Below are positions 36,177-50,797 of a DNA stretch of 64,000 bases, piece by piece. The notes beneath the pieces are model-generated. The model was not told the DNA's origin. It searched no databases and worked only from the letters and a program-made list of their open reading frames with translations. Both the position numbers and the translations under genes were made by a program. Source of the stretch: Butyricimonas synergistica DSM 23225 (lineage in GTDB: Bacteria; Bacteroidota; Bacteroidia; Bacteroidales; Marinifilaceae); the NCBI RefSeq assembly GCF_000379665.1, contig NZ_KB903368.1:62001-126000 (forward strand), read 5' to 3'. Positions within the stretch are counted from its first letter, which is position 1, and each line of letters starts with the position of its first letter.

Positions 36177-36340
36177 TAGCTTTGCATACCCTGATTTTGG
36201 GGTACGCAAAGTGTTTTCATAAGAAAATTGTTATAGGACACTTGTATACAATGTATCACTAGTACAACTTTCACATAGAAGTTATACCATGTAATCGTTC
36301 TAAATAGTGGTCAATCATTGATCGTTATTTGGAACGATTT
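36177..36340 (+). ncRNA. Candidate small RNA ending in a long stem-loop
   Basis: TAGCTTTG (36177-36184) fits the -7 consensus. About 110 bp on, 36293-36315 and 36317-36339 pair at all 23 positions, using 19 Watson-Crick and 4 G-U pairs when read as plus-strand RNA, followed by TTTTATCTTTATT. On the minus strand the four G-U pairs would be A-C mismatches, so the fold is plus-strand specific. No -33 box is obvious. Confidence 0.4.
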
Positions 36341-36449
36341 TATCTTTATTAATTTTCTCGTTACAAATATCAAAATTATAAATAGTAATTTAAATAAATC
36401 AAACATTTTTGCCGCAAAGTACTATATAAATACCAAAACTATTGCAAAA

Positions 36450-36690
36450 GCGCTAGCTTCAAGTGCAGGTCGAGCAAGGAACCGCAAAAACGCAACTCCG
36501 TCGTCTTCGGCATGGTGACCGGTATGGAACGCTGGCTACTCAAAATTATCCGCATCGAGTTCCCCGGTCACAACGATTACCCGAAAGGAGCCAATGGCTT
36601 CGCCACGAGTGCTTCCGGGAAAGAAGCTTCCGACTCGATATGCTTGCGGGAACCCTGCGGACAACCTGCTTGACCAAGAAACCACCGAAC
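36450..36690. other. GC-rich patch of unknown origin, possible gene remnant
   Basis: This block is visibly richer in G and C than its flanks. One plus-strand frame stays open to a TGA at 36672 and reads GMVTGMERWLLKIIRIEF and more, but no family is recognised and there is no good start site. An 8-bp inverted repeat (GTGACCGG with CCGGTCAC) lies inside. It could be a decayed gene or the scar of a mobile element. Confidence 0.35.
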
Positions 36691-36742
36691 AACAAGCATA
36701 CAAATATTTAAAATTTCACTTCTTTATTTCCTATTTTTCAAA

Positions 36743-36771
36743 TAGCTTTGCATAAATACAACATATTTTTG
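36743..36771 (+). promoter_or_regulatory. Promoter region of the dynamin operon (two -7-like boxes)
   Basis: TAGCTTTG (36743-36750) and TATTTTTG (36764-36771) both fit TAnnTTTG, upstream of the ATG at 36797. The 12-mer TAGCTTTGCATA occurs here (36743-36754) and also at 36177-36188. A -33 element at perfect spacing was not seen. Confidence 0.5.
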
Positions 36772-36796: not shown

Positions 36797-37831
36797 ATGA
36801 AAACAGGGAATAAATACAGTAACCCGGAAGAGGAAGAATACCTCTCCGAACCGGAAGATGAAAAGTATCAAGAGAATAATCGGGATGTATCCCGCGACCT
36901 TAAGCCTAATATCCGCCTCAGGAAGATCGGTAAGAAATACGCGGGCATCCCGGAAGAAGATTTCTATCAATTCATGCTTTACAAATTCCGTCAGGATGAC
37001 ATGGATTTCATCATGGACATTTTCGAGGGAGCGGATTTCCTCGGACCATCAATATTGAAAGCCTACAAGAAAGATTACCGGGGAGAATTGACGTTCAGGG
37101 AACTGATGGATGAACTTTACCTTCACCTGAAAGAAAATGACTGGAAGGCCCTCTCGGATTTCAGGGGGGAATGCAGCCTGGTCATCTGGTTACGTTCGAT
37201 CGCCTCCAATTTCTTCAAGAGATTTTACAAGCAAAATCACTTGAATCATCCAACTTCCCCAAAAGAACAATTCAACATCGAATCACCTTATGCCACGGAG
37301 TATGACGTGGTCAATCTCATCAACCGGATCAGCGAGGAAAAAGAAAAAAATCTACTTTTTTTGAAATACGTTCAGAGAATTCCCGACGAGGAGACTCTTA
37401 TAAAAATGAAGCTGAAGGATAACAAGAGCCTCGAACGCCTCCACCGCTTGGCGATCGAACGGGCCGGAAGGATGGCCGCCCAAGACGAATTTCTGAGCGC
37501 TATCTTTTTCGAGCAAGTCAACGGGGGAGTAGCAACGGTCCCGTTATCCGCGGTAAATTTAAACCATCACCACGGGTTGCTTGAAGAGCCCGAATGGAGT
37601 TATAATTTAACGACAGAGCAAATGAAAGATATTGTAAGAAATACGATTTCAAAATGGAAAACGGAAACCTATCGACGGGTCATCGAACTCCGGCTTTTGG
37701 AAGGGAAATCGACCGAGGAAACGGCCGAGGAAATGGGAGTTACACCCGGTAAAGTGTATAATTACCTGAACATCGCTTACAAGCGATTGCTGACGGAGAT
37801 TCAAAACAATAAAAATAAATACTATGCCTGA
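36797..37831 (+). CDS. Atypical sigma-70-like protein heading the dynamin operon
   Basis: The 344-residue protein has an acidic N-terminus (EEEEYLSEPEDE). Its middle resembles sigma region 2 (about residues 95-145: LTFRELMDELYLHLKENDW, then DFRGECSLVIWLRSIASNFF). A spacer of about 135 residues follows, much longer than in ECF sigmas. The C-terminal region 4-like helix-turn-helix (about 285-335) has STEETAEEMGVTPGKVYNYL. It is nearly twice as long as a normal ECF sigma. The start is the ATG at 36797; a GTG at 36779 is less likely. The next gene overlaps by 8 bp. It probably controls this operon, but sigma activity is inferred. Confidence 0.7.
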   Translation: MKTGNKYSNPEEEEYLSEPEDEKYQENNRDVSRDLKPNIRLRKIGKKYAGIPEEDFYQFMLYKFRQDDMDFIMDIFEGADFLGPSILKAYKKDYRGELTFRELMDELYLHLKENDWKALSDFRGECSLVIWLRSIASNFFKRFYKQNHLNHPTSPKEQFNIESPYATEYDVVNLINRISEEKEKNLLFLKYVQRIPDEETLIKMKLKDNKSLERLHRLAIERAGRMAAQDEFLSAIFFEQVNGGVATVPLSAVNLNHHHGLLEEPEWSYNLTTEQMKDIVRNTISKWKTETYRRVIELRLLEGKSTEETAEEMGVTPGKVYNYLNIAYKRLLTEIQNNKNKYYA

Positions 37832-38159
37832 AAGATCGAAACAAACGAAGAAAATCACTCTTGACCAGATAGAGAAAATTCTTGACGGCAGTGCCTCGGC
37901 GGAAGAATCGCTTGCCGGATTAAGTGCGGCCGTCGCTAACGAAGAGGTGGGAGAACTACTGACATCGGAGACCCCGGAAAACGACAAGCAAGACATCCGT
38001 TTCTTCAACAATATGTTTGCGAAGTATGAAGACGAGATCAAACGTTTTATAGAGAAACGAGAAAAGGGTAAAGTCGTTAACGTTGATTTTAAACCGGGTA
38101 ACACCGGGGTCGCCGCAGCCCTGCCCCAAATCCCATCAAAAAAGAAGAAAAAGAAATAA
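37824..38159 (+). CDS. Small protein of unknown function coupled to the sigma-like gene
   Basis: This 111-residue soluble protein starts with KITLDQIEKILDGSASAEES, a layout reminiscent of the short N-terminal helices of anti-sigma factors. It ends with PSKKKKKK. There is no membrane segment. Its start overlaps the end of the sigma-like gene by 8 bp, which implies coupled translation and a possible partner role, for example as an anti-sigma factor. I do not recognise a family. Confidence 0.6.
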   Translation: MPERSKQTKKITLDQIEKILDGSASAEESLAGLSAAVANEEVGELLTSETPENDKQDIRFFNNMFAKYEDEIKRFIEKREKGKVVNVDFKPGNTGVAAALPQIPSKKKKKK

Positions 38160-38171
38160 ATATTACCGATC

Positions 38172-38681
38172 ATGAATGAATTCAATCAGTTGTGGGACGA
38201 AGTCTCGATCATGGTAGATTTCGAGGCCAAAAGAATTAAAAACAGTTCAGGCAAAGTGAACGTGCAACAAATTGAGAACTATTATAAAATCGAGATTATT
38301 GATAAACTATGGTTCAATTTCACGTTTCCCAATAAATACAACAAGTGGGTATGTGATTATTACGGAGAAAAACCTGCCGTTCAACAAGCGATCAGGAAAG
38401 AGATGGACCATTTTTCTCCCGCCTCCCGGGGAAAACGGTCTATCGGATTACTCGCGACCGGAATCGTGATTCTCATTCTGGGACTTCTATCTTACGCGAT
38501 CCCGGATATAAAAAACGTTGTCCCGCTCGGCCTGACGTTAATCGGGATCGGTCTCACGATAGGCGGGACGGTCAAAAATGGTAACTCCCGAAAGTATTGT
38601 GATATGGCAAGCCTGACCGGAGAATTAAACCGAATAAAGAATCAAGTAAATACCCTCATACATGAGCATGCAAATATTTGA
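38172..38681 (+). CDS. Two-helix membrane protein, paralog of the last gene of the operon
   Basis: The 169-residue protein has an N-terminal cytoplasmic region with LWDEVSIMVDFEAKRI and FTFPNKYNKW. Two membrane helices follow (about residues 98-113 and 120-137: LLATGIVILILGLLSYAI, VVPLGLTLIGIGLTIGG), then a short helical tail. The N-terminal part matches the protein at 44361-44882 (LWDEVKVMVDFETKRL, ESFPNKYNAW). No named family is recognised. It starts 12 bp after the previous gene and overlaps the next by 20 bp. Confidence 0.75.
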   Translation: MNEFNQLWDEVSIMVDFEAKRIKNSSGKVNVQQIENYYKIEIIDKLWFNFTFPNKYNKWVCDYYGEKPAVQQAIRKEMDHFSPASRGKRSIGLLATGIVILILGLLSYAIPDIKNVVPLGLTLIGIGLTIGGTVKNGNSRKYCDMASLTGELNRIKNQVNTLIHEHANI

Positions 38682-39591
38682 CAACACGTATCTTTCTCTT
38701 TCCGAATACATGGAGAAAGAGGTACAAGGGTTCAAGAAATTTATCGACCCCCCGTTGTACGTGACCGAACAGGAAAAGGAGTTTTTGGACAGTATCGCCA
38801 AGTTTAACGAGGTGGCACCGGGATTTATCAAGTACACGTTCAACGAGAGTAATATGCTGCGTATTCAAGTTCTCCGGAGCGTACTTGACAGACAACCTGT
38901 TAACGTGAACAATAATTCTCGTCTTTTTGATATTATCACGACGCTATGCAAAAATCTGGGCATCCCGATGCCGTTGGTATACGTGTATTCGGACGAGGAT
39001 ATATACCGGATGGAACGGGCTTTGGAGGAAACGAGTCTGAAAGGACAAGAGCTTTTCCAAAGCAACAACGCTTTTACCTGCGGGTCAAAGGAGATGTTGT
39101 ATGTCTTTATTTCCGAAGAATTGATGGCAAAGACGGAATACACGGACTTGGAGATCATGGCCCTGATCGGGCACGAAATCGGGCACGCTTTGGCGAATCA
39201 CCCGATTAAAGGCAGTATCATGGCAACAGATTTGTCAACGATAACCAACCCGCAGGTGATTGCCCGGATCAAGCAATTGCAACAGAATAATCAATATTCC
39301 CGGTTGCAGGAGATCACGGCAGACCGGGCGGCGGTGATCGCTTGTCGCGACGCCGCAGCAGCTCAATCCATGATCAAGAAAATGAATAACCTGGACGAGG
39401 CTCTTTGGGATTATGATCATTCGGAAGCAAGTCATCCTAACGGAAAGACCCGCGCACGGGCGATCGAACTTTTCGGGAAATCGCTTCTCTATGCCCGTTG
39501 TATCGAATTGATCGATCACACGACCGTTGACAAGAGTGCTTATCTTTTGTCAGCCCGTGATTTGCAAGCAGAAATCATGAAAATCATCTAA
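38662..39591 (+). CDS. M48-type zinc metalloprotease, soluble, inside the dynamin operon
   Basis: The 309-residue protein has the M48 zinc site HEIGH at 171-175 and the third ligand Glu217 in EITADRA. No signal peptide or clear membrane helix is seen, so it is probably cytoplasmic, unlike HtpX or BepA. The N-terminal 160 residues include GIPMPLVYVYSDEDIY, the usual strand before the catalytic helix. Its start lies 20 bp inside the preceding membrane-protein gene. It could process one of the membrane or dynamin-like partners. A second M48 protein is encoded at 45009. Confidence 0.88.
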   Translation: MSMQIFDNTYLSLSEYMEKEVQGFKKFIDPPLYVTEQEKEFLDSIAKFNEVAPGFIKYTFNESNMLRIQVLRSVLDRQPVNVNNNSRLFDIITTLCKNLGIPMPLVYVYSDEDIYRMERALEETSLKGQELFQSNNAFTCGSKEMLYVFISEELMAKTEYTDLEIMALIGHEIGHALANHPIKGSIMATDLSTITNPQVIARIKQLQQNNQYSRLQEITADRAAVIACRDAAAAQSMIKKMNNLDEALWDYDHSEASHPNGKTRARAIELFGKSLLYARCIELIDHTTVDKSAYLLSARDLQAEIMKII

Positions 39592-39606
39592 ACCTATAAA
39601 CCCGTT

Positions 39607-41052
39607 ATGAGTGACAAAAATGATATATTGATTCCGGATCTACCCGGAGAGATCGGTTCGAAAGTGCAGGAGATGGTTGATCTCATTCCCTCTTCCGAGA
39701 AACAAGTATGTATCGCGTGTAGTCGGGATATTGAAGCCGAGGTCTGCTCGCTGTTCTCGGGGATGCTTCATTCCGGGATGTTTGAAGATTACACGTTTGA
39801 ATTTTCTTCTATCGGCAACGACGAGGATATTTCCCGAAATGCACCTGTAAACCGGGCGGCACGTAATGTACTCGTGATGGATGCACAACACCTTCTGAAA
39901 GGTTCAGATGTAGCCTTACTTGATTACATCGCAGTACACGACGCGCTCCGGGCCGGACTGGCGATAGTGCTTCTTCACGCTCACTTGATCCCTTCCGTGA
40001 CAGAGGCGGTAGCCACCGTGGAAAAGGTGTTGGAGGTAAAAGGGATCACGGCTCCCGTACACGTGGAAGGCAAAGGGAATACCGGGGTGTGGCTCGTGCA
40101 GCATTTCATATCAAATCCGGTTAACCTGGATGATGTGGCTCGCGAGAAAGCACGTGATATAGACGTTTTCGTGCAGGCTTCTTTGGAAGAACAGTTAGCC
40201 CGGGTGGAGGGCAAGCTGGAAACTCTCGAACAGGCTATCGCTCGTTTCAAAGAGCGGCGGGAATCGTTCGAGGTATACGCGAAACAGCTTGACCTGACGT
40301 TATGGGTGAAGATTCAGAATTACTGCTCGACTCATTTTGACGAGGATATCACGAAGTTCGCCCGAGAAGCTCGCTTACTGATTGACAAGGAATTGCATGC
40401 GATAGATGTTCAGAAAATACAATTTTATTTCAGCCCTTATCTCAACTACCTGTGGGGAGAGTTCTTGTGCAACGAGATCAGGAAGACGATGGACGTGGTG
40501 CGTGATGACATGGAATACAAATTGGCTTCGTTGACAGCGAAGTACAAAAGCTATTTCGGGAAAGAGATGGATGTTTTGCATCTGGAAGCGGACGGGGTTC
40601 GTGCGGGAAATCAACCGATCAGTTTCGACACGGTCGATTTGTATAACAATTCGATCAAGAACGCGGTTGAAGGCGTGATTCGTAACGTGCTCGTGTTCGT
40701 GGCTAGTTTTCATGGCGGATTCTGGGGATATTTGCTGGGAGAGGTCGTGACGAATATTCTCATGAAGCTTTTTGGCGGCTTGCTGAAGATTAAACGCAGT
40801 AACACGGAACTCGTGCAACTTTACTCGGAGGCATTGACCCAGCAGTTTCAAGAAGGGCTTGAACACATCAAAACGCAACTCAAAGAGACGCTGATGCCCT
40901 TGCTGGAGAGAAATTTCAAAAATTCTATTCACGAGATCAAGGAGATGTTCCTGAAAAATATCGACGAGATCGGACAACAATACGAGGGGGAAAGGACAAA
41001 CCTTCTGGCTCGTCAGGCGAAGTTGAAGAATTTGCTAAATAAGATGATTTGA
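39607..41052 (+). CDS. Dynamin-like helical protein lacking a P-loop
   Basis: The N-terminal 165 residues of this 481-residue protein show alternating strands and helices like a GTPase core (QVCIACS, NVLVMDAQHLL, GLAIVLLHAHL) but have no GxxxxGKS motif, DxxG or NKxD. A coiled coil (about 190-225) and a helical bundle follow. A hydrophobic glycine-rich patch (about 354-394: VLVFVASFHGGFWGYLLGEV) is like the membrane paddle of bacterial dynamins, and a second coiled coil ends the protein (about 405-480). It lies 46 bp before the large dynamin-like GTPase. A nucleotide-free partner or scaffold role is inferred. Confidence 0.65.
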   Translation: MSDKNDILIPDLPGEIGSKVQEMVDLIPSSEKQVCIACSRDIEAEVCSLFSGMLHSGMFEDYTFEFSSIGNDEDISRNAPVNRAARNVLVMDAQHLLKGSDVALLDYIAVHDALRAGLAIVLLHAHLIPSVTEAVATVEKVLEVKGITAPVHVEGKGNTGVWLVQHFISNPVNLDDVAREKARDIDVFVQASLEEQLARVEGKLETLEQAIARFKERRESFEVYAKQLDLTLWVKIQNYCSTHFDEDITKFAREARLLIDKELHAIDVQKIQFYFSPYLNYLWGEFLCNEIRKTMDVVRDDMEYKLASLTAKYKSYFGKEMDVLHLEADGVRAGNQPISFDTVDLYNNSIKNAVEGVIRNVLVFVASFHGGFWGYLLGEVVTNILMKLFGGLLKIKRSNTELVQLYSEALTQQFQEGLEHIKTQLKETLMPLLERNFKNSIHEIKEMFLKNIDEIGQQYEGERTNLLARQAKLKNLLNKMI

Positions 41053-41098
41053 GTGTTATAAAAACAGTTGGTTATACAAAAATAATCTTTAAGATTGT

Positions 41099-43363
41099 AT
41101 GAACGTAAAAGAATTTAACGAGACGGTTAACGTTTGCAACAAGTCTCTTCAAGATGTATTACTTAATATCGGTCATGAAGCACCCGCGTTGCAGTCCGCG
41201 GCTACGATCGAATACGCCGAAGCTATAGCGAAAGAATCCGTACGTAATAACATGGGACTTGTACGGGTGCTGTTCTTGGGAGCATCAAATTCGGGTAAGA
41301 GTGCGCTGATCAACAATTTGGCACGTAAGATTATTGTCCCGGAGGTAATTCATACCTCGACGCTCATGCCTACCTGGATCGGACGCACGGAGGATTACGC
41401 GAACGAGGGGGTTACGGTGAACTATTTTGATATTGACAAGGAAGGACGCCGGAAAGGTAGTTTGAAATCCAAACGGGAGACGATTGATGATTTTCGCTGT
41501 TATTATTGTTACACGGAGAAAGATTTGGCCGATCGTGATCGTCTCGTGAAACCCGATCGCTTTAAAAGTATGGAACTGAACGAGGCTTATATTTCGCTTC
41601 ACGAGGTGGAGGGTGCCTGTAAAGATTACGCCCTCGTGCTTGTCGATACATTGGGGAACGGGGCTTCAAGCGTGGATGACGAGAAGGCCCAACACAACAT
41701 GAAGAATTGCGATTTCGCTTTCGTGTTGGTTGATTCCCTTGGGAATCTCACGGATCAAGATATTGATTTTTTCGGTTCCACGCTTTTTAACCCGAAGGTT
41801 TCCAATATCAAGCCGGAGCATATTATTTTTGTCATCAACAAGATCGACCTGTCTCCCTCTCGGCATGGTTCAATCGAGAATTGCAAGAACAATATCGCGG
41901 CCCTGTTGAAAAAAGCCTATTCCGGTAAAGTGCCCAAGGAACTTTATGAACGATTGTGTTCGCAGATCGTGACTTACTCCGCTTTATATAATCGTCTGGC
42001 ATTTTGCGGCGTGTATCCCTACAAGGAAGATGCCATTAAAATCAATGGCCTGAATCGAAAGGAGTTGGAAACTTCGGATGAGAAAAAGGTGGAGACCATT
42101 CGCACGATCGTGAAGGAGAAGGAAGAATTTGAAGAGGAAAAATCCTATCTGCCTAAAGAAATGTTACTTAAAAAGGGGTATTACGAGGATTTTAACGCCA
42201 TATTGGGCAAGGTGATCGGCAACATGTTCGCTGACGGTACGATCTATGATAATCACCTGAACGGCACGAAAGAGATGGCGATGAATATTCGGCTGGCGAT
42301 TCAGAATAGGATCAACGCCCTCGCATCAAATGCCGAGGCGATCGAGGCAAAGATAGCGGCATTCCAGAAAGCGAAAGAGACGATCCAGACCCTTTCCGGC
42401 AATTACGAACAGGAGAGCGAAACGATCGCCCGCAACTTCCCGTCGGAAGTCGATACGTATATCAAGCATCATTCCCAACAATTGCTTATTAGCGCAACCG
42501 TGGGGATCAACAAGATGATTGACGGGATCAAAATAGATGTCCCTCATGGTAATTACACGCCAAAGTCTTTGAAGGAGCTGACTTCCATCGAGATTGAAAA
42601 TGACTTTTTACCTTCCCTGCTTAAACCGGTTCCCAAGATTGTCGATTTGATATGTAACACGATTAGCGCAAATATATTCACTCCCGTACAAACAACCCGG
42701 CAAACCCCGTATCGCCAGATCGTGGATAAGTTATCACAATCCATGAATAATTATATCACGTCTGTATTGGATGAGATTCGCGCTATCAATTCGGATAACA
42801 AATTTAAGGTTACCGTGGTGAACAAATCTATTTTCGAGAAAAAGATCAGCGACAGCCTGTACGAGATGAGCGTGCTTCTGATTATTATTATCCAGAAACA
42901 GATTGACGAGATCATCAACACGTCGATCTCTTCGACGGTCAGGAAATCGTTACGCGGGTGGTGGACTAGCGTGAAGATATTTTTCGGAGGCGGTAACGTG
43001 GATAAGATGTTCGAGAAGATGGAGGAAGCAGCTCGTACAGAGTTGCGGAACAAGATAAATTCGGATATTGCCGGACGTTTGGTTCGTTCGGAAGGTTTTC
43101 TGGGCAAGGATGCTACCCTGAATTTGTATAGCCTTCTTTCGAAAGCCACCCGCGAATGTGATAATATGGTCAAACTTTATCTCAGCAATATCGAACACGA
43201 GCTTAACGCTCTTCGCGATCACCTGCAGGAGAATCAGGGGCGTATAGAGTTCTATCGTGATTTTGCCACGGAGAAGGTGAATAAACCCCTGGATCACGTA
43301 ATCGAGGAAATTGATCGGTTGCGCGCGGACGTGATCGCTAACGGGATAGATACGATAAATTAG
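41099..43363 (+). CDS. Dynamin-like GTPase, full length
   Basis: The 754-residue protein has a dynamin-type GTPase domain: GASNSGKS at 61-68, switch I threonines in HTSTLMPTW (85-93), DTLG at 183-186 and NKID at 247-250. A long helical bundle follows (about 380-754). It contains hydrophobic stretches such as SVLLIIIIQKQID and a short basic-Trp region (RGWWTSVKIFFGGG) that could insert in membrane. It is probably a bacterial dynamin-like protein that remodels or tethers membranes. The next GTPase gene follows after 4 bp. Bacterial dynamin-like proteins often work in pairs. Confidence 0.82.
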   Translation: MNVKEFNETVNVCNKSLQDVLLNIGHEAPALQSAATIEYAEAIAKESVRNNMGLVRVLFLGASNSGKSALINNLARKIIVPEVIHTSTLMPTWIGRTEDYANEGVTVNYFDIDKEGRRKGSLKSKRETIDDFRCYYCYTEKDLADRDRLVKPDRFKSMELNEAYISLHEVEGACKDYALVLVDTLGNGASSVDDEKAQHNMKNCDFAFVLVDSLGNLTDQDIDFFGSTLFNPKVSNIKPEHIIFVINKIDLSPSRHGSIENCKNNIAALLKKAYSGKVPKELYERLCSQIVTYSALYNRLAFCGVYPYKEDAIKINGLNRKELETSDEKKVETIRTIVKEKEEFEEEKSYLPKEMLLKKGYYEDFNAILGKVIGNMFADGTIYDNHLNGTKEMAMNIRLAIQNRINALASNAEAIEAKIAAFQKAKETIQTLSGNYEQESETIARNFPSEVDTYIKHHSQQLLISATVGINKMIDGIKIDVPHGNYTPKSLKELTSIEIENDFLPSLLKPVPKIVDLICNTISANIFTPVQTTRQTPYRQIVDKLSQSMNNYITSVLDEIRAINSDNKFKVTVVNKSIFEKKISDSLYEMSVLLIIIIQKQIDEIINTSISSTVRKSLRGWWTSVKIFFGGGNVDKMFEKMEEAARTELRNKINSDIAGRLVRSEGFLGKDATLNLYSLLSKATRECDNMVKLYLSNIEHELNALRDHLQENQGRIEFYRDFATEKVNKPLDHVIEEIDRLRADVIANGIDTIN

Positions 43364-43367
43364 TGCC

Positions 43368-44360
43368 ATGCCAACTCTTGATATAGAAGAAATAACCGAG
43401 ATTCAGAAGCACCTGCTACTTTGTAAATCTTTATCTTTCCGCCGTAAGTTGGCCCTTGATTTAGGACTGTACAAGGTGGTAGTGGCGGGGACTTCGAATT
43501 CCGGGAAAAGTACGCTTGTCAATGCACTCTCGGGGCGGGAATTACTCCCGGAATCCATGTCTACGAGCACAAAAATCACGACTTATATCGGGCGTTCGTG
43601 TCTCGGGGCTAGCTATGATGTTATCGTTATGGGAGGCCAGGACAGGACACGGCAACACATGGAATATGACGCTTTTCTTCGCGAGTATGTTTATGGTTTG
43701 AAAGAAATTTATCAGGGGGAGCAAAGTGCCGAGAATTTAATGTCGGGATTCGTCAATTGTTCCCATGATTTGACGGATCACGGGGTGTGCCTGATTGACA
43801 CGATCGGTATCGGGATTAATGACTACGACGTGAAACGCACGGCTGAGATTATGCGGGAGGCTGATGTTGTCGTGTTCCTTTATGACGGTTCCAAGCATGG
43901 AAATCTCACCAGTGATGAGATTGATTTTCTCAAAGCAACGTTGTTCAAAGATAAGAAACGGCCGTTGTTGCCTTACGAGCGAATGATTTTTGCCCCTAAC
44001 AAGATGGATTGTGTCGCCTCGACGGCTCAGATCAAACAGATATTAAGTTATGATCTTGGTAATTTCGTCCCATCGGGTTCCGGGGAATGGCAGCAACTCG
44101 TGAAGAATATTTTCCCGATTTCAGCCCGCTATCACCGTTTGGCTCAAGTGGGAATCGCGAATTACTCGGCCGTGAAGGATTCAATGACCAGAGCCGAATT
44201 GATGAACAATGATTTTGAAATTATACAAAACGCCAGTTTTCGAAGCGGTGATTATAAAAATTACCTGAAAGAACGGTCGGGAGTGAACCTTTTAGTTGAT
44301 CGTATCGTTGATATATTAGGAGATATCGACATAGACGATATTATAGATAAATATATTTAA
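43368..44360 (+). CDS. Short dynamin-like GTPase without a long stalk
   Basis: The 330-residue protein has GTSNSGKS at 41-48, STSTKITTY in switch I (65-73), DTIG at 144-147 and NKMD at 211-214. The G domain fills nearly the whole protein and only a short helical tail remains, so the usual dynamin stalk is missing. The motifs match the neighbouring 754-residue GTPase closely (ASNSGKS/TSNSGKS). It begins 4 bp after that gene and ends directly at the start of the last gene. Pairing with the stalk-only protein at 39607 is an attractive but untested idea. Confidence 0.82.
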   Translation: MPTLDIEEITEIQKHLLLCKSLSFRRKLALDLGLYKVVVAGTSNSGKSTLVNALSGRELLPESMSTSTKITTYIGRSCLGASYDVIVMGGQDRTRQHMEYDAFLREYVYGLKEIYQGEQSAENLMSGFVNCSHDLTDHGVCLIDTIGIGINDYDVKRTAEIMREADVVVFLYDGSKHGNLTSDEIDFLKATLFKDKKRPLLPYERMIFAPNKMDCVASTAQIKQILSYDLGNFVPSGSGEWQQLVKNIFPISARYHRLAQVGIANYSAVKDSMTRAELMNNDFEIIQNASFRSGDYKNYLKERSGVNLLVDRIVDILGDIDIDDIIDKYI

Positions 44361-44882
44361 ATGCAACTTGTTATGGAAGCGTATTTAGTAGATCAGTTCA
44401 AGACACTATGGGACGAGGTAAAGGTCATGGTGGATTTCGAGACCAAACGGTTGGTAGGGATGCACGATCAGAATATCGTGAAAAAACTCAACGGGTATTA
44501 CGTTTATGAAATTCTTCGCGGCTTGTGGTTCTCCGAATCATTTCCCAACAAGTATAATGCCTGGTATGCCGCTCTCGCCGAGGCTGACCATCTCCGTGCG
44601 GAGAAAGTTGAAAAGATTTTGATGAAAAATAATGCTCTTCTGGATGATAATGATGAAGATCGGCTTGTGCGTAACGTGATCACGGGAGGATTGACGGGAA
44701 CCGGATTGTTCGCCGCTCTTGCCAAGAAGCCCAAATTGGCATTGTTTATGCTTGGAGCAGCTTTGATTACCTTCTTTTTCACGGGCAATGAAAACAAGAT
44801 TATCGCCGAGGCCCAGTCGCTCGTATCCAAACGATTATCCGAGATTGAAAACGAGATTCTCTCTATTCTCGTGGAACCGTAA
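44361..44882 (+). CDS. Membrane protein, paralog of the third gene of the operon
   Basis: The 173-residue protein shares the N-terminal motif with 38172-38681 (TLWDEVKVMVDFETKRL, GYYVYEILRGLWF, SFPNKYNAWY). A glycine-rich segment (VITGGLTGTGLFAALA, about 109-124) and one clear membrane helix (about 127-145, LALFMLGAALITFFF) follow, with a charged tail. It starts immediately after the short GTPase stop. A second ATG (44373) may be the true start. The pair may form the membrane anchor of the dynamin complex. Confidence 0.75.
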   Translation: MQLVMEAYLVDQFKTLWDEVKVMVDFETKRLVGMHDQNIVKKLNGYYVYEILRGLWFSESFPNKYNAWYAALAEADHLRAEKVEKILMKNNALLDDNDEDRLVRNVITGGLTGTGLFAALAKKPKLALFMLGAALITFFFTGNENKIIAEAQSLVSKRLSEIENEILSILVEP

Positions 44883-44904
44883 ATCCTACGTTATAGACCG
44901 ATAG

Positions 44905-44940
44905 AAAGCAAGTGCGACAAAAAAATGTCGCACTTGCTTT
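44905..44940 (+). terminator. Strong terminator of the dynamin operon
   Basis: A 15-bp perfect stem (44905-44919 with 44926-44940) encloses a 6-A loop, with six Ts running from the end of the right arm (44938-44943). It lies 22 bp after the last stop and marks the operon end. Confidence 0.95.
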
Positions 44941-45008
44941 TTTATTTCAGAGATTTTCTTCGAGGATGCCTCTATTGTATTTAGAAAGCGAATAATAATA
45001 CAAATAAC

Positions 45009-45893
45009 ATGAACGATTTTGTAAATACATTTGTACATCCGGAAGATGCCGCCGCCCTCAAATTGATGAAATCAATTCCCGGCTTTGATCTGGTGGTGAA
45101 GAAGGTTCTCGACCTGAGCTACGAAACTCTCTTGTACGGGATCAACATGGCCTCGAAAATCAGGCTCTCGGAAAAGCAAATGCCCAAGTTATATTATCGC
45201 CTTGTCATCATATGCAAACGACTGGGCATTGATGTTCCCGAGTTCTACCTCGAAATGAATCCCTATCCCAACGCCTACACATTCGGAGATACCCGGATAT
45301 TTCTGGTTATCACCTCCGGCTTGCTTCAATACCTCAAAGAAGATGAGGTCGATTCCGTGTTAGCCCACGAATGCGGACACATCCTATGCCGTCACGTGCT
45401 ATATACCACGATGGCCGACCTGCTGAAAACAGGCGGGGATGCCTTGGGACTTCTCGGACCTTTCCTAGTCCCGCTTCAATACGCCATGCTATACTGGTCA
45501 CGCAAGAGCGAGCTATCGGCAGACCGCGTGGGAGCGATTATCAGCGGCAAGGATACGATCGTGAAAACTCAATTGCGACTGGCCGGTGGACCGGAAGAGG
45601 TTACCGGCGAGGTTAACGTGGAAGAGTGGGCGAAACAGGCCGACAGTTACGAGGAAATTCGGGACGGGAAGACATGGGACAAATTCCTCCAGATCGTGGC
45701 AACCGCAAATCTTGATCACCCGTTCGCCGCCGTCCGGGTGAGAGAAATCATGAAATGGTGTGACACTCCCGATTTTCAGGATGCCCGAAAATATATTCAC
45801 GAACATTACGCGATCAAAAATCGCTGTCCCCGTTGCGGGGCCAAAGTTGAGGAAAACTGGATCCATTGTATCTATTGCAACACGAAACTTTAA
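45009..45893 (+). CDS. M48-type metalloprotease with C-terminal zinc ribbon
   Basis: The 294-residue protein has HECGH at 120-124 and Glu168 in ELSADR as the third ligand. A hydrophobic segment lies between them (about 146-162, LGLLGPFLVPLQYAMLYW), and a zinc ribbon at the end has CPRC (273-276) and CIYC (287-290). There is no signal peptide. It differs from the M48 protein in the dynamin operon, and the ribbon suggests binding to a protein or nucleic acid partner. It heads a second run of plus-strand genes after the dynamin operon terminator. Confidence 0.88.
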   Translation: MNDFVNTFVHPEDAAALKLMKSIPGFDLVVKKVLDLSYETLLYGINMASKIRLSEKQMPKLYYRLVIICKRLGIDVPEFYLEMNPYPNAYTFGDTRIFLVITSGLLQYLKEDEVDSVLAHECGHILCRHVLYTTMADLLKTGGDALGLLGPFLVPLQYAMLYWSRKSELSADRVGAIISGKDTIVKTQLRLAGGPEEVTGEVNVEEWAKQADSYEEIRDGKTWDKFLQIVATANLDHPFAAVRVREIMKWCDTPDFQDARKYIHEHYAIKNRCPRCGAKVEENWIHCIYCNTKL

Positions 45894-45935: not shown

Positions 45936-46298
45936 ATGAAAAAAGAAAAGACAATCAAGCATTCCTCCCTCCGGGAGAAACTGTTAGAATATTCGAGAAA
46001 AGTGGGAAGGGCAAGCGCTCGCCCGGTACTACTCATGTACCAAGTCATGAAAAGTCCGAAAACCCCGAAGGGCGACAAACTTCTGATCTTTGCCGCGCTC
46101 TCCTACCTGTTACTACCCATGGACATTATCCCAGTAAAACGGTTGCCCCTTCTCGGCTGGTTCGACGAGATATTCTCGCTAACCGTAGTTTACCAAAAAG
46201 TCTGCAAGTATATCACCCCGGAAATAGAATACAAGGTTAATTGTACCCTGGACAAGTGGTTCCCAGAATACTCCAAATACGAGGTATTAACCCAATAA
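45936..46298 (+). CDS. DUF1232 (YkvA-like) membrane protein
   Basis: The 120-residue protein carries the DUF1232 core GDKLLIFAALSYLLLPMDII followed by PVKRLPLLGWFDEIFSL, with its typical LLPMD and FDE elements. A basic N-terminus (MKKEKTIKHSSLREKL) precedes it. The function of the family is unknown. It lies 42 bp after the M48 gene and 14 bp before the next. Confidence 0.85.
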   Translation: MKKEKTIKHSSLREKLLEYSRKVGRASARPVLLMYQVMKSPKTPKGDKLLIFAALSYLLLPMDIIPVKRLPLLGWFDEIFSLTVVYQKVCKYITPEIEYKVNCTLDKWFPEYSKYEVLTQ

Positions 46299-46312: not shown

Positions 46313-46822
46313 ATGAACAGAGAATTACGATATGCTTTACAGGGGACAGCCCGACACACTATCTTCGAGGGTGAAACATGGGTCAGCGATCTATTGGCCG
46401 ACCTCACGGAAGAAAACGCGCGACACCAGATCTCCCAAAGATTTGACGACCGTTTTTCATACACCTGGTTCGGGATTTTGTTCCAGCGAGGCCGAGCAAG
46501 CTGGGTCGAGAAATACGGGCTATTGTCGTTATTCAACAAGGGAAGTCACTTCATGTACATGCCGATTCACAAGAAACAATTCCGAGATCCCATCTGGGAT
46601 AATTATCTGCCGGAACGTCTGAAAATGCTAAAGAAAGGGCATGTTCTGGCAGAACTCTCCTGGATTTCGGAAGACGAGATCGAACTCAACAAATGCATCC
46701 GAAAATATACCGACTGCGACAACGAGGAGTACGATGAACTGGAAATCCGGATGAAAGGATTTTATAACAGGAACGGTCATTTGAAAGCCCCGTTTACTAT
46801 TGAAAAAGTTGAAATATATTAA
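46313..46822 (+). CDS. Protein of unknown function
   Basis: The 169-residue soluble protein begins MNRELRYALQGTARHTIFEG and has no signal peptide or membrane segment. It is rich in aromatic residues (DDRFSYTWFGILFQRGRASW). The ATG at 46313 is chosen because earlier in-frame codons overlap the preceding gene. I recognise no family. Its place between the DUF1232 gene and the next unknown gene, with gaps of 14 and 16 bp, implies co-transcription. Confidence 0.6.
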   Translation: MNRELRYALQGTARHTIFEGETWVSDLLADLTEENARHQISQRFDDRFSYTWFGILFQRGRASWVEKYGLLSLFNKGSHFMYMPIHKKQFRDPIWDNYLPERLKMLKKGHVLAELSWISEDEIELNKCIRKYTDCDNEEYDELEIRMKGFYNRNGHLKAPFTIEKVEIY

Positions 46823-46838
46823 ATTAAAATACAAAACC

Positions 46839-47456
46839 ATGAAATATTACGAAGTATGGGGACAGGACACATTTGCCGGAGAAGACTACTTTTGCGGGCG
46901 GTATCTTACCCGTCAGGAAGCTGTTGAAGCACTCCTGCAAAAAGAGAAAGAAGTCGAGAAAACACAAGACGAAGAAATACGAGATACATATTCCATTATC
47001 GTCATTACCGAAAACGAAATCGAAGAACGGGAAAAAGAACAAAACCGGATTAATATCGAGAAAGCAGCCGAAGTGTCCTTCAACGTAAAACACTTGACCC
47101 TCCACATTCGCGAACTTTTAAGGCTATTCAAGAATGCATGGGAAAAAACCGATCCAATAGATTTATTAAGAAAAAACGAAGAAGAAAACAAGTTAATCCA
47201 AGAAGTAACATGCAATAATGAAGAAGATTGTTTCTCTCAAATAGGATTCAGCACATTTCACAGCAACGGGTGGCTCATCGTCAGCATTAATGTCACGGTA
47301 CGAAGCGGAAAATATTTCCACGGAGGCCGTATCACGTCCAACCACGTGTTTATAAACTCCCGACGGGCTATGTTGGAATGGGCCGATACGAAGGAAGCCC
47401 TGGACGATTGCACGAACAAGATAAAAGAATTAATAAAAACTTTTTACAAAGACTAG
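46839..47456 (+). CDS. Protein of unknown function, charged helical middle
   Basis: The 205-residue protein starts MKYYEVWGQDTFAGEDYFCG, which resembles small 'wgr'-like or DUF openings. A strongly charged helix comes next (KEKEVEKTQDEEIRDTYS, then NEIEEREKEQNRIN). The beta-rich C-terminal part includes GFSTFHSNGWLIVSINVTV. There is no signal peptide. The ATG at 46839 is chosen as the first after the stop of the preceding gene. No family is recognised. Confidence 0.6.
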   Translation: MKYYEVWGQDTFAGEDYFCGRYLTRQEAVEALLQKEKEVEKTQDEEIRDTYSIIVITENEIEEREKEQNRINIEKAAEVSFNVKHLTLHIRELLRLFKNAWEKTDPIDLLRKNEEENKLIQEVTCNNEEDCFSQIGFSTFHSNGWLIVSINVTVRSGKYFHGGRITSNHVFINSRRAMLEWADTKEALDDCTNKIKELIKTFYKD

Positions 47457-47478: not shown

Positions 47479-48540
47479 ATGAAAAGATTGAAAAACATGA
47501 CCATATTCTGGAAAATCATTGCCGGGAGCCTGACCGCTTGTATTTTGATTTTCACGCTGGCATTCTGCTATTTTTTCTACGAGAAAGAAATAAAAGATGA
47601 CTTGTTTTATACATCCGAGTATTATGATACACAAATATCAAGGCATATATGGTACCACAAAAGCAGTTATGACGGCAAGGGATACATTTTCAACTGTGAA
47701 ACCGGGAAGAAAACATTGAAAGATGTTAGCTGGATTACCCTCTCGGAAGAAGGAGATCCTCTTGCTGTCTTCTCCACGGGAGAGAAAAGAGGATATTTCA
47801 ATATCCACACCGGGAAAGTATCCTTACCCGCCCAGTATTCCAAAGCCTGGATATTCTCGGAAGGTGTTGCAGCCGTGTCAACGAATGACAGCCTATTTTT
47901 TATAGACCACACGGGAGAGAAAATATTCGAGCATGGTTTCATCCTCCCGCAAGAAACAAGGGATTACTGTTTCCACAACGGTTATTGCCTGTTGGCAAAC
48001 GAAAAAGGACAAATGGGATTGATTGACAAAAGCGGTAATTGGGCTCTTGCCCCGGAATACGATAACCTAGTACGTGAAGGACGCAATTACTGGTCCGCTT
48101 GCAAGGATGGACACTGGGGTGTTTACTCCGATTCTCTGGTAGAGATTCTCGCTTGTGAATATGAAATGGTCACCGTGTCGGAAGACCGCGGGATTTACAT
48201 CTCCCAAAGCGATCACATCCAAAAACGTTGCGACTACGACGGTACGATCCTCGACGATTTTATTTGCGGAAGTATCTATCAACTCAGTTACGACACGGGA
48301 ATATACAACGAAAACGGAGAGACCATGATGGCCACGGCTCAATGCTGGATGTACGCGGTGGAAACCGGATATTACGGATTAATAAGTCCCGAGGGTAAAC
48401 TCATCACCCCTCCTCGCTATAAAAACATCGAGGCTCTTGGCAAAGATATTTATCTCTGTTCATACGATTATAACGGAATATTCAGCCTTCTCCTTGACAG
48501 CAAGGGAAATATTATTCATCCACAATCGAGCAACCATTAA
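47479..48540 (+). CDS. Membrane-anchored WG-repeat protein
   Basis: The 353-residue protein has a single N-terminal membrane helix (about residues 9-30, FWKIIAGSLTACILIFTLAF). WG-type beta repeats follow (KGQMGLIDKSGNWALAPEYD, then GHWGVYSD, ETGYYGLISPEGKLITPPRY, NGIFSLLLDSKG). WG repeats are common in Bacteroidota envelope proteins and are thought to bind other proteins. It is in the same run as the M48/DUF1232 genes, 22 bp after the previous stop. Confidence 0.8.
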   Translation: MKRLKNMTIFWKIIAGSLTACILIFTLAFCYFFYEKEIKDDLFYTSEYYDTQISRHIWYHKSSYDGKGYIFNCETGKKTLKDVSWITLSEEGDPLAVFSTGEKRGYFNIHTGKVSLPAQYSKAWIFSEGVAAVSTNDSLFFIDHTGEKIFEHGFILPQETRDYCFHNGYCLLANEKGQMGLIDKSGNWALAPEYDNLVREGRNYWSACKDGHWGVYSDSLVEILACEYEMVTVSEDRGIYISQSDHIQKRCDYDGTILDDFICGSIYQLSYDTGIYNENGETMMATAQCWMYAVETGYYGLISPEGKLITPPRYKNIEALGKDIYLCSYDYNGIFSLLLDSKGNIIHPQSSNH

Positions 48541-48547
48541 TCGGGAC

Positions 48548-48895
48548 ATGATGAAATTCAAAATTCATAAAGCGACAATCTACCAAGATGCTTTCGACAA
48601 AGAAATCGGAACCTGTATCACCGTATATATCGAAAACGGGATTCTCTCGATCATTCAAGTCGATTGGGGCGGCATTACCCACGAATACTCCCGCGACGGC
48701 GAGGTCGAAAGCTTCCTGTTCTTCGATCTACCGAACATGAAGAAACTCGCCGGGACCTTACATGTCAAAGGAGATGAAATGCTGGTAAAGAAAATCGCAG
48801 AACATTTCGGACGACACAAGAGTTTTGCCAAGCACGAGATCCAAAAATACTGCGACAAACGGGAAATCATGTATAAAACTCACGTGTATTACTAG
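48548..48895 (+). CDS. Small protein of unknown function
   Basis: The 115-residue soluble protein starts at one of two adjacent ATGs (48548 or 48551). It contains VDWGGITHEYSRDGEVESF and a helical C-terminal half rich in Lys. No family is recognised. It is 7 bp downstream of the WG-repeat gene. Its 3' end overlaps the convergent YjbR-type gene by 29 bp. Confidence 0.6.
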   Translation: MMKFKIHKATIYQDAFDKEIGTCITVYIENGILSIIQVDWGGITHEYSRDGEVESFLFFDLPNMKKLAGTLHVKGDEMLVKKIAEHFGRHKSFAKHEIQKYCDKREIMYKTHVYY

Positions 48896-49127
48896 CGGAT
48901 AATTTCTCCCGTTCTTTCTTGGTAAGGCCGTTGACTACAATATCGTAAGATTTTTTCACAAGTTCCCGGATCTTGTTATCCGGGACATCCTGGTTGAAAT
49001 GGACGCTAATCCAATATTTCTTGTTCATGTGCCAGCCGGGGGTTATCCCGACGTACCGGGCCCGTAATTCTACCGATTCGTCGGGATCACACTTGATACA
49101 ACAAAAATCGAACACCTCGATATTCAT
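48867..49127 (-). CDS. MmcQ/YjbR-family protein with apparent internal deletion
   Basis: The 86-residue product matches the C-terminal half of MmcQ/YjbR proteins (CIKCDPDESVELRARYVGIT, PGWHMNKKYWISVHF, then ELVKKSYDIVVNGL). Full-length relatives are around 115-120 residues and begin MNIEE followed by a long N-terminal strand-helix part. Here the start MNIE passes directly into the central strand (VFDFCCIKC), so about 40-50 codons seem to be missing in frame. The frame remains open. The product may be nonfunctional or a minimal form. A -7-like box (TATATTTG, minus, 49166-49173) lies upstream. Confidence 0.7.
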   Translation of the reverse strand: MNIEVFDFCCIKCDPDESVELRARYVGITPGWHMNKKYWISVHFNQDVPDNKIRELVKKSYDIVVNGLTKKEREKLSASNTREFYT

Positions 49128-49315
49128 TTTATCTGACTTTTTCCGATTCCGGTTTTACCCGCACCCAAATATAAAGAATTCTAAAGAGTATGATTGTGTA
49201 CAAAATAAAGAGAATGAGTTATATGTTCAAAGTCCGTCTTGTATTTATGAATTACTAAAAAAAGAATATCTCATGGCTATCTTGTAACGTATTTCAATAA
49301 AAACTTGTCCTGTGT

Positions 49316-50797
49316 TTACTTTATTTTAATCTTTTTCCCTTTCGACTCGTTGTGGAAGCGGTCGATGGCGGTAATCACGTAACGGTATTTTGTTCGGGAG
49401 ACGGGGAGATAACATTCCGTGTAACGCGTGATGGCGGCGATTTTGGTGGGATCGTTGAGGTTGATCTTTTCTTTCGGGGCAAAGCGGTAGATCACGAAAT
49501 ATTGGGGATTGCGCGGATCTTCGCGGTCGCCGATAGAGAACCATTTCACGGTGTAGCCTTTGTCCGTGCGTTCGGTTCGGGGTTTGGCGATTTTCTTGGG
49601 GTGTCCGTTGTGCATATGCGTGTACGCGGGAATCAATGCCGGGTAGCGGTGGTAATGCTCCCGGAGGCTGTCGGCGACGCCCTTGTTATTCCACAATATC
49701 TCGTTGGCAGGCCAAAAGCAATTGCCTTTCACGTGGCGTAGGGAACGGGCGGTTTCCATTTTGGTCGTCAGGTCGCCGGCTTTCATCGTTCGAGCCACGT
49801 CTTGCCCGAGGTAAAGGTGGATGTCGTGAGCGTTTTTGTTCCACCATTGGGCAAGGGTGATATAGTCTGCTGCCGGGTGTCCGATTTCCCAGTATACCTG
49901 GGGGATGTTGTAATCGATCCATTTCTTTTTAACCCACAGCGTCACGTCTGCGTACAGGTTGTCGTAGTTCTGCAACCCGTTGGTATTGCTGCCGCTACCG
50001 TCCGGGGTGCTTTGTTTGTTGCGGTATATCCCGAAGGGGCTGATACCGAAACGTACCCAAGGTTTGGTTTGAACGATTGTTCGTTTCAGATCCCGGATGA
50101 GTTGGTTCACGTTCTCTCGGCGCCAGTCATCCCGTTCGTCGGGTGAATATCCTTTCGCCTGCCCGTAAGTATGGAAACTATTGTCGTCGGGGAAAGGCAT
50201 CCCGTTCACGGGATACGGGTAAAAGTAGTCGTCCATGTGAATGGCGTCCACGTCATAGCGGCTTACGATGTCTTCCACTACCCGGCAGATGTATTCCCGG
50301 CAGGCGGGGATGCCCGGGTCAAAAAGCAATTGCTTGTTATAGGTGACGAACCACTCTGGATGCTCGTGATAGACGTGGGAATCCGACAAGGTGGCGGTTC
50401 CCGAGGTACACGCCCGGAAGGGGTTCAACCAGGCGTGAAATTCCATGTTCCGGCGGTGGCATTCTCGGATGAGGAAAGCCATCGGGTCAAAGAACGGCTC
50501 CGGGGCAACTCCTTGTTTACCGGTGCAGAAACGGCTCCACGGTTCGATCTCCGAGTGATACCATGCGTCGGCTTCCGGTCGTACCTGGAAAACGATAGCG
50601 TTTATCCCGCATTCCTGCAAATAATTCAATTTGCGGATAAAGTCAGCTTTCATCTCGTCCGGTGACATCTTGGCATATTCGCTCTGGAACACGGTTTGTA
50701 TCCATGCCCCGCGAAATTCGTGTTTCGGGTATTCCTGTGCCGAGAGGCGTGCCGTGCCGAGAAGTGCTAGAAAAATGAACGATAGAATATATTTCAT
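49316..50797 (-). CDS. Secreted glycoside hydrolase-like protein, GHL10 (DUF187) family
   Basis: The 493-residue protein has a signal peptide (cleavage near RLSAQ, residue 21). The GHL10 barrel includes FRGAWIQTVFQSEY, GINAIVFQVRPEADAWY, HAWLNPFRA, DAIHMDDYFYPYP and RFGISPFGIYRN. The C-terminal part (about 410-493) looks like a fibronectin III domain (YTVKWFSIGDREDPRNPQYF). Family members act on glycan or peptidoglycan substrates, but most are uncharacterised. The gene is preceded by the terminator of the O-antigen-ligase operon, so it is a separate unit. Confidence 0.9.
   Translation of the reverse strand: MKYILSFIFLALLGTARLSAQEYPKHEFRGAWIQTVFQSEYAKMSPDEMKADFIRKLNYLQECGINAIVFQVRPEADAWYHSEIEPWSRFCTGKQGVAPEPFFDPMAFLIRECHRRNMEFHAWLNPFRACTSGTATLSDSHVYHEHPEWFVTYNKQLLFDPGIPACREYICRVVEDIVSRYDVDAIHMDDYFYPYPVNGMPFPDDNSFHTYGQAKGYSPDERDDWRRENVNQLIRDLKRTIVQTKPWVRFGISPFGIYRNKQSTPDGSGSNTNGLQNYDNLYADVTLWVKKKWIDYNIPQVYWEIGHPAADYITLAQWWNKNAHDIHLYLGQDVARTMKAGDLTTKMETARSLRHVKGNCFWPANEILWNNKGVADSLREHYHRYPALIPAYTHMHNGHPKKIAKPRTERTDKGYTVKWFSIGDREDPRNPQYFVIYRFAPKEKINLNDPTKIAAITRYTECYLPVSRTKYRYVITAIDRFHNESKGKKIKIK

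What the first reader, a model, noticed from the sequence alone, without database searches (positions are those of the whole stretch)
36797..44940. Eight-gene operon combining a sigma-like protein, M48 protease, dynamin-like GTPases and paired membrane proteins
Seen directly: eight plus-strand genes with gaps from -20 to +46 bp, closed by a 15-bp terminator at 44905-44940. The set holds one sigma-like regulator, one small partner, two related membrane proteins, one M48 protease, two P-loop dynamin-like GTPases and one helical dynamin-like protein without a P-loop. Family knowledge: bacterial dynamins remodel or tether membranes and some are linked to phage or stress defence; M48 proteases act in membrane quality control. 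Inference: a membrane-repair or anti-phage machine under its own sigma factor. I do not know this gene combination as a described system.
Basis: partly seen in the sequence, partly recalled or inferred. Interest (0 to 1): 0.87.

Follow-up and report, generated by a model that had tools for sequence, protein, structure and literature searches.

The report
Sigma-led dynamin and M48 protease island
A gut-type Bacteroidota genome carries an island, absent from the same site in its five sampled sister species, in which a dedicated gene switch sits in front of three membrane-shaping dynamin-like proteins, a cytosolic protease and two small membrane proteins; related switch genes elsewhere drive dynamins, proteases or immune-type genes, so this is probably a phage- or stress-response module and not housekeeping.

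Summary
In detail: eight tightly packed plus-strand genes (36797-44882), then a strong terminator. Domain calls hold: ECF-like sigma, M48 protease (HEIGH...E), two dynamin GTPases with intact P-loops, one P-loop-less protein whose C-half matches the LeoBC dynamin profile (shuffled controls do not), and two paralogous membrane proteins. The small second gene resembles, weakly, the anti-sigma-like partner of related loci and overlaps the sigma gene by the same 8 bases.

The operon lies in a ~13-kb segment (about 36.1-49.2 kb) missing at this site in all five congeners examined. It also holds a second M48 protease with a zinc ribbon, a DUF1232 protein and a WG-repeat protein. The exact gene set was not found in other genomes sampled. 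Its sigma, second M48, WG protein and a dynamin do have relatives in loci with one chassis: sigma, overlapping C39-type partner, then dynamins, Hsp70, DO-GTPases, M48, or TIR plus STAND ATPase. A cyanobacterial plasmid carries the C39-dynamin-Hsp70-DO-GTPase set without the sigma.

Best reading: an inducible dynamin-based conflict (anti-phage or envelope-damage) module, a new variant of a known kind. Function is inferred. HtpX-like membrane quality control is not supported: neither M48 protein has a transmembrane segment.

The parts
36797..37831 (+). ECF-like sigma factor (344 aa): region 2 near residues 97-150, region 4 near 270-340, with an insert of about 120 aa between them
   Evidence: Sigma70_r4_2 E 1.7e-9; TIGR02937 1.4e-12; 66.4 bits to the HMM of the cassette sigma family, against 16-25 bits for other sigma-like ORFs in the same set
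37824..38159 (+). small soluble protein (111 aa), candidate anti-sigma-like partner, overlaps the sigma gene by 8 bp
   Evidence: same 8-bp overlap as in L038, L039, L043; local similarity 'LDGSASAEES' to the partner N-terminus 'LDGNTTPEE' (best shuffle p 0.0003), but no HMM-level hit: inconclusive
38172..38681 (+). membrane protein A, two predicted TM helices, LWDEVxxMVDFExKR / FPNKYNxW motifs
   Evidence: hydropathy 2.35 and 1.87; 37% identical to 44361-44882; no Pfam family
38662..39591 (+). soluble M48 metalloprotease, HEIGH at 171, E217 (EITAD)
   Evidence: Peptidase_M48 8.7e-18; motifs and absence of a TM segment
39607..41052 (+). dynamin-like protein without GTPase motifs (no GxxxxGKS, no NKxD), C-terminal helical stalk-like half
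   Evidence: LeoBC profile 1.1e-6 over 178-478, controls negative; motif search
41099..43363 (+). large dynamin-like GTPase (754 aa), G1 GASNSGKS 61-68, G3 DTLG 183, G4 NKID 247, long C-terminal half
   Evidence: Dynamin_N 7e-8; motifs; 32% identical to the next protein over the GTPase domain
43368..44360 (+). short dynamin-like GTPase (330 aa), G1 GTSNSGKS 41-48, G3 DTIG 144, G4 NKMD 211, no stalk
   Evidence: Dynamin_N 6.4e-12; related to the dynamins of L040 (2e-10) and of an Anabaena plasmid (1e-9)
44361..44882 (+). membrane protein B, paralogue of membrane protein A (alternative start at 44373)
   Evidence: alignment; one hydrophobic segment at 124-142 above threshold; SLATT_4 similarity only E 0.032
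44905..44945 (+). intrinsic terminator hairpin
   Evidence: -26.1 kcal/mol, z -8.0
45009..45893 (+). second soluble M48 metalloprotease with C-terminal zinc ribbon
   Evidence: Peptidase_M48 6.6e-18, Zn_ribbon_3 1.9e-5; 2.8e-98 to the M48 gene of L039, which starts 12 bp behind the sigma/C39 pair there
45936..46298 (+). DUF1232 (YkvA-type) small membrane protein
   Evidence: DUF1232 4.2e-8; relative beside three dynamins in L017 (1.4e-4)
46313..47456 (+). two genes of unknown function (46313-46822, 46839-47456)
   Evidence: no Pfam match of note
47479..48540 (+). WG-repeat protein with an N-terminal hydrophobic stretch
   Evidence: WG_beta_rep 2.5e-16; 4e-46 and 3e-45 to WG proteins in sigma-led loci L044 and L043
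36066..49171 (.). accessory segment absent from this site in five congeners (left edge approximate)
   Evidence: the conserved GHL10 gene directly follows the SusCD/TlpA-type genes in L026-L029, and a small two-gene cargo in L025

Best explanation
An accessory, inducible dynamin-based conflict or membrane-damage module. SHOWN: one compact unit of sigma, small overlapping partner, 2TM protein, soluble M48, P-loop-less dynamin-like protein, long dynamin, short dynamin and 2TM paralogue, with a strong terminator, inside a ~13-kb segment missing from congeners. INFERRED: the small partner holds the sigma factor inactive. A trigger (phage attack or envelope damage) releases it, perhaps by M48 proteolysis in place of the C39 peptidase that is fused to the partner in sister loci. 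The sigma then drives its own operon. The long GTPase, the short GTPase and the P-loop-less subunit form a hetero-oligomer recruited to the inner membrane by the paired 2TM proteins, where GTP turnover tethers or remodels membrane, either sealing or isolating damage and delaying lysis (as reported for DynA) or shutting down the infected cell.
For: Compact operon and terminator. Sigma closer to the cassette sigma family than other sigma-like ORFs are (66 bits against 16-25). In eight loci with that sigma (L018, L038-L044), seven have a partner with C39-like sequence directly behind it, and cargo includes dynamins (L018, L038, L040), M48 (L039, L044), Hsp70 (L018, L040), DO-GTPase (L040), kinase and phosphatase (L018), TIR plus nSTAND1 (L043). 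The window's second M48 and WG proteins are strong homologues of genes in these loci (2.8e-98, 4e-46). An Anabaena plasmid carries C39, two dynamins, Hsp70 and DO-GTPases together. The P-loop-less protein matches LeoBC with clean controls. Presence/absence at the site. Literature: DynA delays phage lysis (PMC8844932); Eleos is described as a dynamin-like defence system (PMC11811056); DO-GTPase/Hsp70 systems are predicted counter-invader systems (PMC7159879).
Against: The exact gene set occurs in no other genome sampled, so co-conservation of the eight genes cannot be shown. P0002 as anti-sigma is only weakly supported. No C39 domain was found in the island. No defence profile hits P0006, P0003, P0004 or P0008. 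Similarity of P0007 to cassette dynamins is modest (about 1e-10). No integrase, tRNA or terminal repeats mark the segment, and its GC matches the flanks. Structure predictions failed (pLDDT 40 and 46).
Confidence: 0.5

Rival explanations
1. Envelope-stress repair operon without a defence role: the sigma/partner pair senses inner-membrane damage, the dynamins and 2TM proteins patch the membrane, and the M48 protease clears damaged proteins.
For: Dynamins and an own regulator fit stress repair; M48 proteins have stress roles (family knowledge); the WG-repeat and DUF1232 neighbours have hydrophobic segments. DynA also acts in membrane surveillance (PMC8844932).
Against: Absent from five congeners and from almost all sampled relatives, unusual for core stress repair; M48 proteins lack TM segments; sister loci carry TIR, nSTAND and DO-GTPases.
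Confidence: 0.25
2. LeoABC-like vesicle or secretion machine: dynamins drive membrane vesicle release, with no immune role.
For: Three dynamin-type genes in tandem and a LeoBC match, as in ETEC leoC-leoB-leoA, whose deletion halves vesicle cargo (PMC4159319).
Against: No sigma, M48 or 2TM pair is described for LeoABC; the order differs; the LeoBC match covers only the stalk half; no N-terminal membrane anchor or export signal was seen in the dynamins.
Confidence: 0.1
3. A chance or patchwork cluster of unrelated accessory genes that happen to share a strand.
For: The full set was not found elsewhere; unmarked segment edges.
Against: Junctions of -20 to +46 bp, two paralogous pairs inside the set, a single terminator, and independent co-occurrence of the sigma family with dynamins or M48 in other genomes.
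Confidence: 0.1

Closest known systems
LeoABC / Eleos dynamin systems
   Same: Tandem dynamin genes; C-half of P0005 matches LeoBC and the GTPase domain of P0007 matches LeoA/LeoBC weakly.
   Different: Here the subunits are a P-loop-less stalk protein, a long GTPase and a short GTPase, with sigma, M48 and 2TM genes in the same operon.
Bacterial paired DLPs (C. jejuni DLP1/2, cyanobacterial BDLP, DynA)
   Same: Heterotypic dynamin-like GTPases, operon-encoded or fused.
   Different: Dedicated sigma and protease; three subunits, one without GTPase motifs.
GTPase-centric (DO-GTPase/GAP1/Hsp70) conflict systems of Kaur et al. 2020 (PMC7159879)
   Same: Related sigma-led locus L040 and the Anabaena plasmid carry DO-GTPases and Hsp70 together with dynamins; modular regulated cargo.
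   Different: The window has no DO-GTPase or Hsp70; that paper's main text mentions no dynamin, sigma factor, C39 or M48.
ECF sigma plus caspase/EACC2 neighbourhoods (PMC8195603)
   Same: An ECF sigma coupled to a protease-based conflict system, as a concept.
   Different: Caspase and TPR proteins there; M48 and dynamins here.
HtpX / M48 quality-control proteases
   Same: M48 fold and zinc motif.
   Different: No TM segments, far below NCBIfam HtpX cut-offs, operon context.

Membership tests
Bacterial dynamin-like proteins | Dynamin_N GTPase domain with G1, G3, G4 motifs (P0006, P0007) | tested here: met
   Dynamin_N above the curated cut-off, motifs present
Bacterial dynamin-like proteins | Dynamin_N GTPase domain with G1, G3, G4 motifs (P0005) | tested here: not met
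   no P-loop or NKxD; only the stalk half matches LeoBC
LeoABC / Eleos | LeoA and LeoBC proteins across their full length | tested here: not met
   partial matches only: P0005 to 317-592/601, P0007 to short GTPase stretches; P0006 none
ECF-type sigma factor | sigma regions 2 and 4 | tested here: met
   region 4 by Pfam, regions 2 and 4 by the family HMM in two segments, TIGR02937 above its cut-off; promoter recognition not testable
Sigma-led C39/dynamin cassettes seen in L018, L038-L044 | sigma of that family | tested here: met
   66 bits against 16-25 for other sigma-like ORFs
Sigma-led C39/dynamin cassettes seen in L018, L038-L044 | overlapping anti-sigma-like partner | tested here: inconclusive
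   8-bp overlap and local similarity to L038, but no HMM hit
Sigma-led C39/dynamin cassettes seen in L018, L038-L044 | C39-like peptidase fused to the partner | tested here: not met
   P0002 is 111 aa with no C39 domain; L044's partner is also too short to hold one
M48 peptidase | HExxH plus downstream Glu | tested here: met
   HEIGH/EITAD and HECGH/ELSAD
HtpX membrane protease | transmembrane helices around the M48 domain | tested here: not met
   no hydrophobic segment above threshold in either protein
SLATT 2TM effectors | SLATT profile match | tested here: inconclusive
   only P0008, E 0.032, far below cut-off
Anti-phage defence system | reduces phage propagation | not testable with these tools
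   needs plaque assays

The most novel reading that the evidence does not exclude
A modular class of conflict cassettes, not described in the papers searched here, in which a dedicated sigma factor and an overlapping anti-sigma/peptidase partner form a constant switch in front of exchangeable effectors (dynamins, M48, Hsp70/DO-GTPases, TIR-STAND). The window is a divergent member in which the partner is reduced and M48 proteases take the proteolytic role.
Probability: 0.4. Interest if true: 0.8.

Novelty: new variant of a known kind. Interest (0 to 1): 0.62.

Why it matters
Bacterial dynamins are common but few have a known trigger or partners. This locus links three dynamin-type subunits, one without GTPase motifs, to a dedicated sigma factor, a soluble M48 protease and paired membrane proteins, and ties them to a wider set of sigma-led loci that also carry C39 peptidases, Hsp70, DO-GTPases and TIR/STAND genes. 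If right, it gives a testable switch for dynamin-based immunity: transcription-level amplification through a private sigma factor.

Tried and rejected
Searches for the exact system: plasmids, phages, viral contigs and two genome-contig scans found no relative of P0006, P0006/P0007 or P0003/P0008; the contig scans need short exact peptides, so they speak only about close relatives. A LeoBC family search of whole genomes was non-specific, ringing in all 14 control genomes, but it led to L017 and L018. The cassette-sigma alignment over 212 class genomes gave nothing, but it did not recover the home genome's own sigma either, so that result is uninformative. Structure prediction gave unusable models, so no fold search was run. 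An internal repeat of region 4 in P0001 was not significant (p 0.067). P0005 is not detectably similar to P0006 in pairwise tests. The SLATT reading of P0008 was not significant. The plasmid neighbourhood of a P0009 relative in Bernardetia was ordinary. No tRNA, Rfam RNA or terminal repeats were found. Considered and rejected: HtpX-type quality control, because there are no TM segments.
Full report
The observation. The eight genes are real and tightly packed on the plus strand from 36797 to 44882, with junctions of -8, +12, -20, +15, +46, +4 and 0 bp. A hairpin at 44905-44945 folds at -26.1 kcal/mol, z -8.0 against dinucleotide shuffles, and is followed by a T/A-rich tract. This is more than chance: the set also contains two paralogous pairs, the 2TM proteins (37% identity) and the two GTPases (32% over the GTPase domain).

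Identity of the parts. P0001 is an ECF-like sigma factor (Sigma70_r4_2 1.7e-9; TIGR02937 1.4e-12 above its cut-off) with a long insert between regions 2 and 4. P0004 is an M48 protease with HEIGH and a downstream EITAD glutamate and no transmembrane segment. P0006 and P0007 are dynamin-family GTPases with complete G1, G3 and G4 motifs; P0007 is essentially only the GTPase domain. P0005 has no P-loop and no NKxD, but its C-terminal 300 residues match the LeoBC profile at 1.1e-6, while reversed, shuffled and heptad-shuffled versions give no LeoBC match. It is best described as a dynamin-like stalk protein; that its N-terminal part is a decayed GTPase domain is inference. P0003 and P0008 share an N-terminal motif (LWDEVxxMVDFExKR ... 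FPNKYNxW) and have a hydrophobic C-terminal part. They have no Pfam family. P0002 is a small soluble protein.

The island. In five congeners the conserved GHL10 gene (window 49316-50797) lies behind a SusCD/TlpA-type gene set, with no counterpart of 36.1-49.17 kb. One congener, L025, holds a different two-gene cargo there, and the window keeps a remnant of about 120 bp of it from 49171. The site therefore seems to exchange cargo. No tRNA or terminal repeat was found, and GC is not distinctive.

Distribution. P0006 was found only in the home genome among 59 family and 295 order genomes, P0007 among 395 phylum genomes, the 2TM pair among 295 class genomes and P0005 among 198 class genomes. The thresholds were strict for P0006 and P0007 (1e-8 to 1e-15), and the search scores only a limited number of first-look candidates, so distant relatives would be missed. 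Plasmid, phage, viral and genome-contig scans found no close relative of P0006 or the 2TM pair.

The related chassis. Following a LeoBC-like pair in a same-family genome led to L018: a sigma factor overlapping a C39-like protein, then two dynamins, Hsp70-like protein, zinc-ribbon/WG protein, Ser/Thr kinase and PP2C phosphatase. That sigma has relatives in 7 of 198 order genomes. Their loci (L038-L044) repeat the design: sigma; a partner, overlapping by 8, 8, 8, 11 or 14 bp in five of the seven, with an N-terminus like 'ISEELLAAYLDGNTTPEE' (weak zf-HC2 similarity in two) and usually a C39-like domain; then cargo. Cargo is two dynamins in L038; dynamin, Hsp70, two DO-GTPase-like proteins and a dynamin in L040; an M48 with zinc ribbon in L039; an M48 and a WG protein in L044; TIR, nSTAND1 and a WG protein in L043. 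L041 and L042 show no such effector, and L039, L041 and L042 are cut by contig ends. The window's sigma scores 66 bits against the HMM of this sigma family, where the other sigma-like ORFs in the fetched set score 16-25. The window's second M48 matches that of L039 at 2.8e-98 and its WG protein those of L044 and L043 at 4e-46 and 3e-45. P0007 matches the L040 dynamin at 2e-10. An Anabaena plasmid carries Hsp70, two DO-GTPase-like genes, a C39 peptidase and two dynamins, all homologous to genes of L040 or L018, so the linkage of C39 with dynamins and Hsp70 crosses phyla, without the sigma.

The partner. P0002 starts with the same 8-bp overlap as in L038, L039 and L043 and aligns to the L038 partner (LDGSASAEES / LDGNTTPEET; 1 of 3000 shuffles as good), but scores nothing against the HMM of partner N-termini. 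Its role as anti-sigma factor is a reasonable inference, not a result.

Mechanism. The likeliest reading is an inducible module: sigma held by P0002, released on infection or membrane damage, with M48 proteolysis as the possible release step or as an effector; then expression of a three-part dynamin assembly recruited to the inner membrane by the 2TM pair. Shown: the parts, their order, motifs and links to sister loci. Inferred: release, assembly, target and outcome. Anti-phage function is plausible from precedent: DynA delays phage lysis (PMC8844932), Eleos is described as a dynamin-like defence system (PMC11811056), and DO-GTPase/Hsp70 neighbourhoods are predicted counter-invader systems (PMC7159879). 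That last paper's main text mentions no dynamin, sigma factor, C39 or M48, and none of the ten paper searches turned up a description of this combination; the library is open-access only.

Verdict. The locus is a new variant of a known kind (dynamin-based accessory systems), with a fair chance that it belongs to a wider sigma-led class that has not been described.

Noticed in passing
L018:6112-17739 (same-family genome): Sigma, C39-like protein, two dynamins, Hsp70-like protein, zinc-ribbon/WG protein, Ser/Thr kinase, zinc-ribbon proteins and PP2C in one strand run.
   Followed up: yes
L040:3636-13521: Sigma, C39 partner, dynamin, Hsp70, two DO-GTPase-like proteins, a protein related by eye to two Anabaena plasmid hypotheticals, and a second dynamin.
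   Followed up: partly
L043:3170-18329: Same sigma/partner pair in front of TIR, nSTAND1 ATPase, ankyrin-like, membrane and WG-repeat proteins.
   Followed up: partly
L046:2221-13882 (Anabaena sp. 90 plasmid pANA01): Hsp70, two DO-GTPase-like genes, C39 peptidase and two dynamins beside a CHAT-domain gene, without the sigma; linkage of C39 with dynamins across phyla.
   Followed up: yes
L017:4957-12677: DUF1232-type protein followed by three dynamin-like GTPases, a membrane protein and a DUF3990-like gene (last name by eye).
   Followed up: no
window 49171-49300 and L025:17300-18230: The window keeps a remnant of a small gene that is intact in the congener L025 next to a DUF3990-like gene: the site exchanges cargo.
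   Followed up: partly
window 48890-49110, minus strand: Short ORF that looks by eye like a truncated MmcQ/YjbR-type protein at the right edge of the segment.
   Followed up: no
window 36400-36720: Fragment with decayed reading frames between the upstream DUF4953 gene and the sigma gene; single copy in the genome.
   Followed up: partly
window 36293-36339: 20-pair inverted repeat followed by a T-rich tract, probably ending the upstream SusCD/DUF4953 transcript.
   Followed up: no
window 36743-36771: Two TAnnTTTG (-7 like) Bacteroidota motifs just upstream of the sigma gene, without a TTTG at the usual distance.
   Followed up: no
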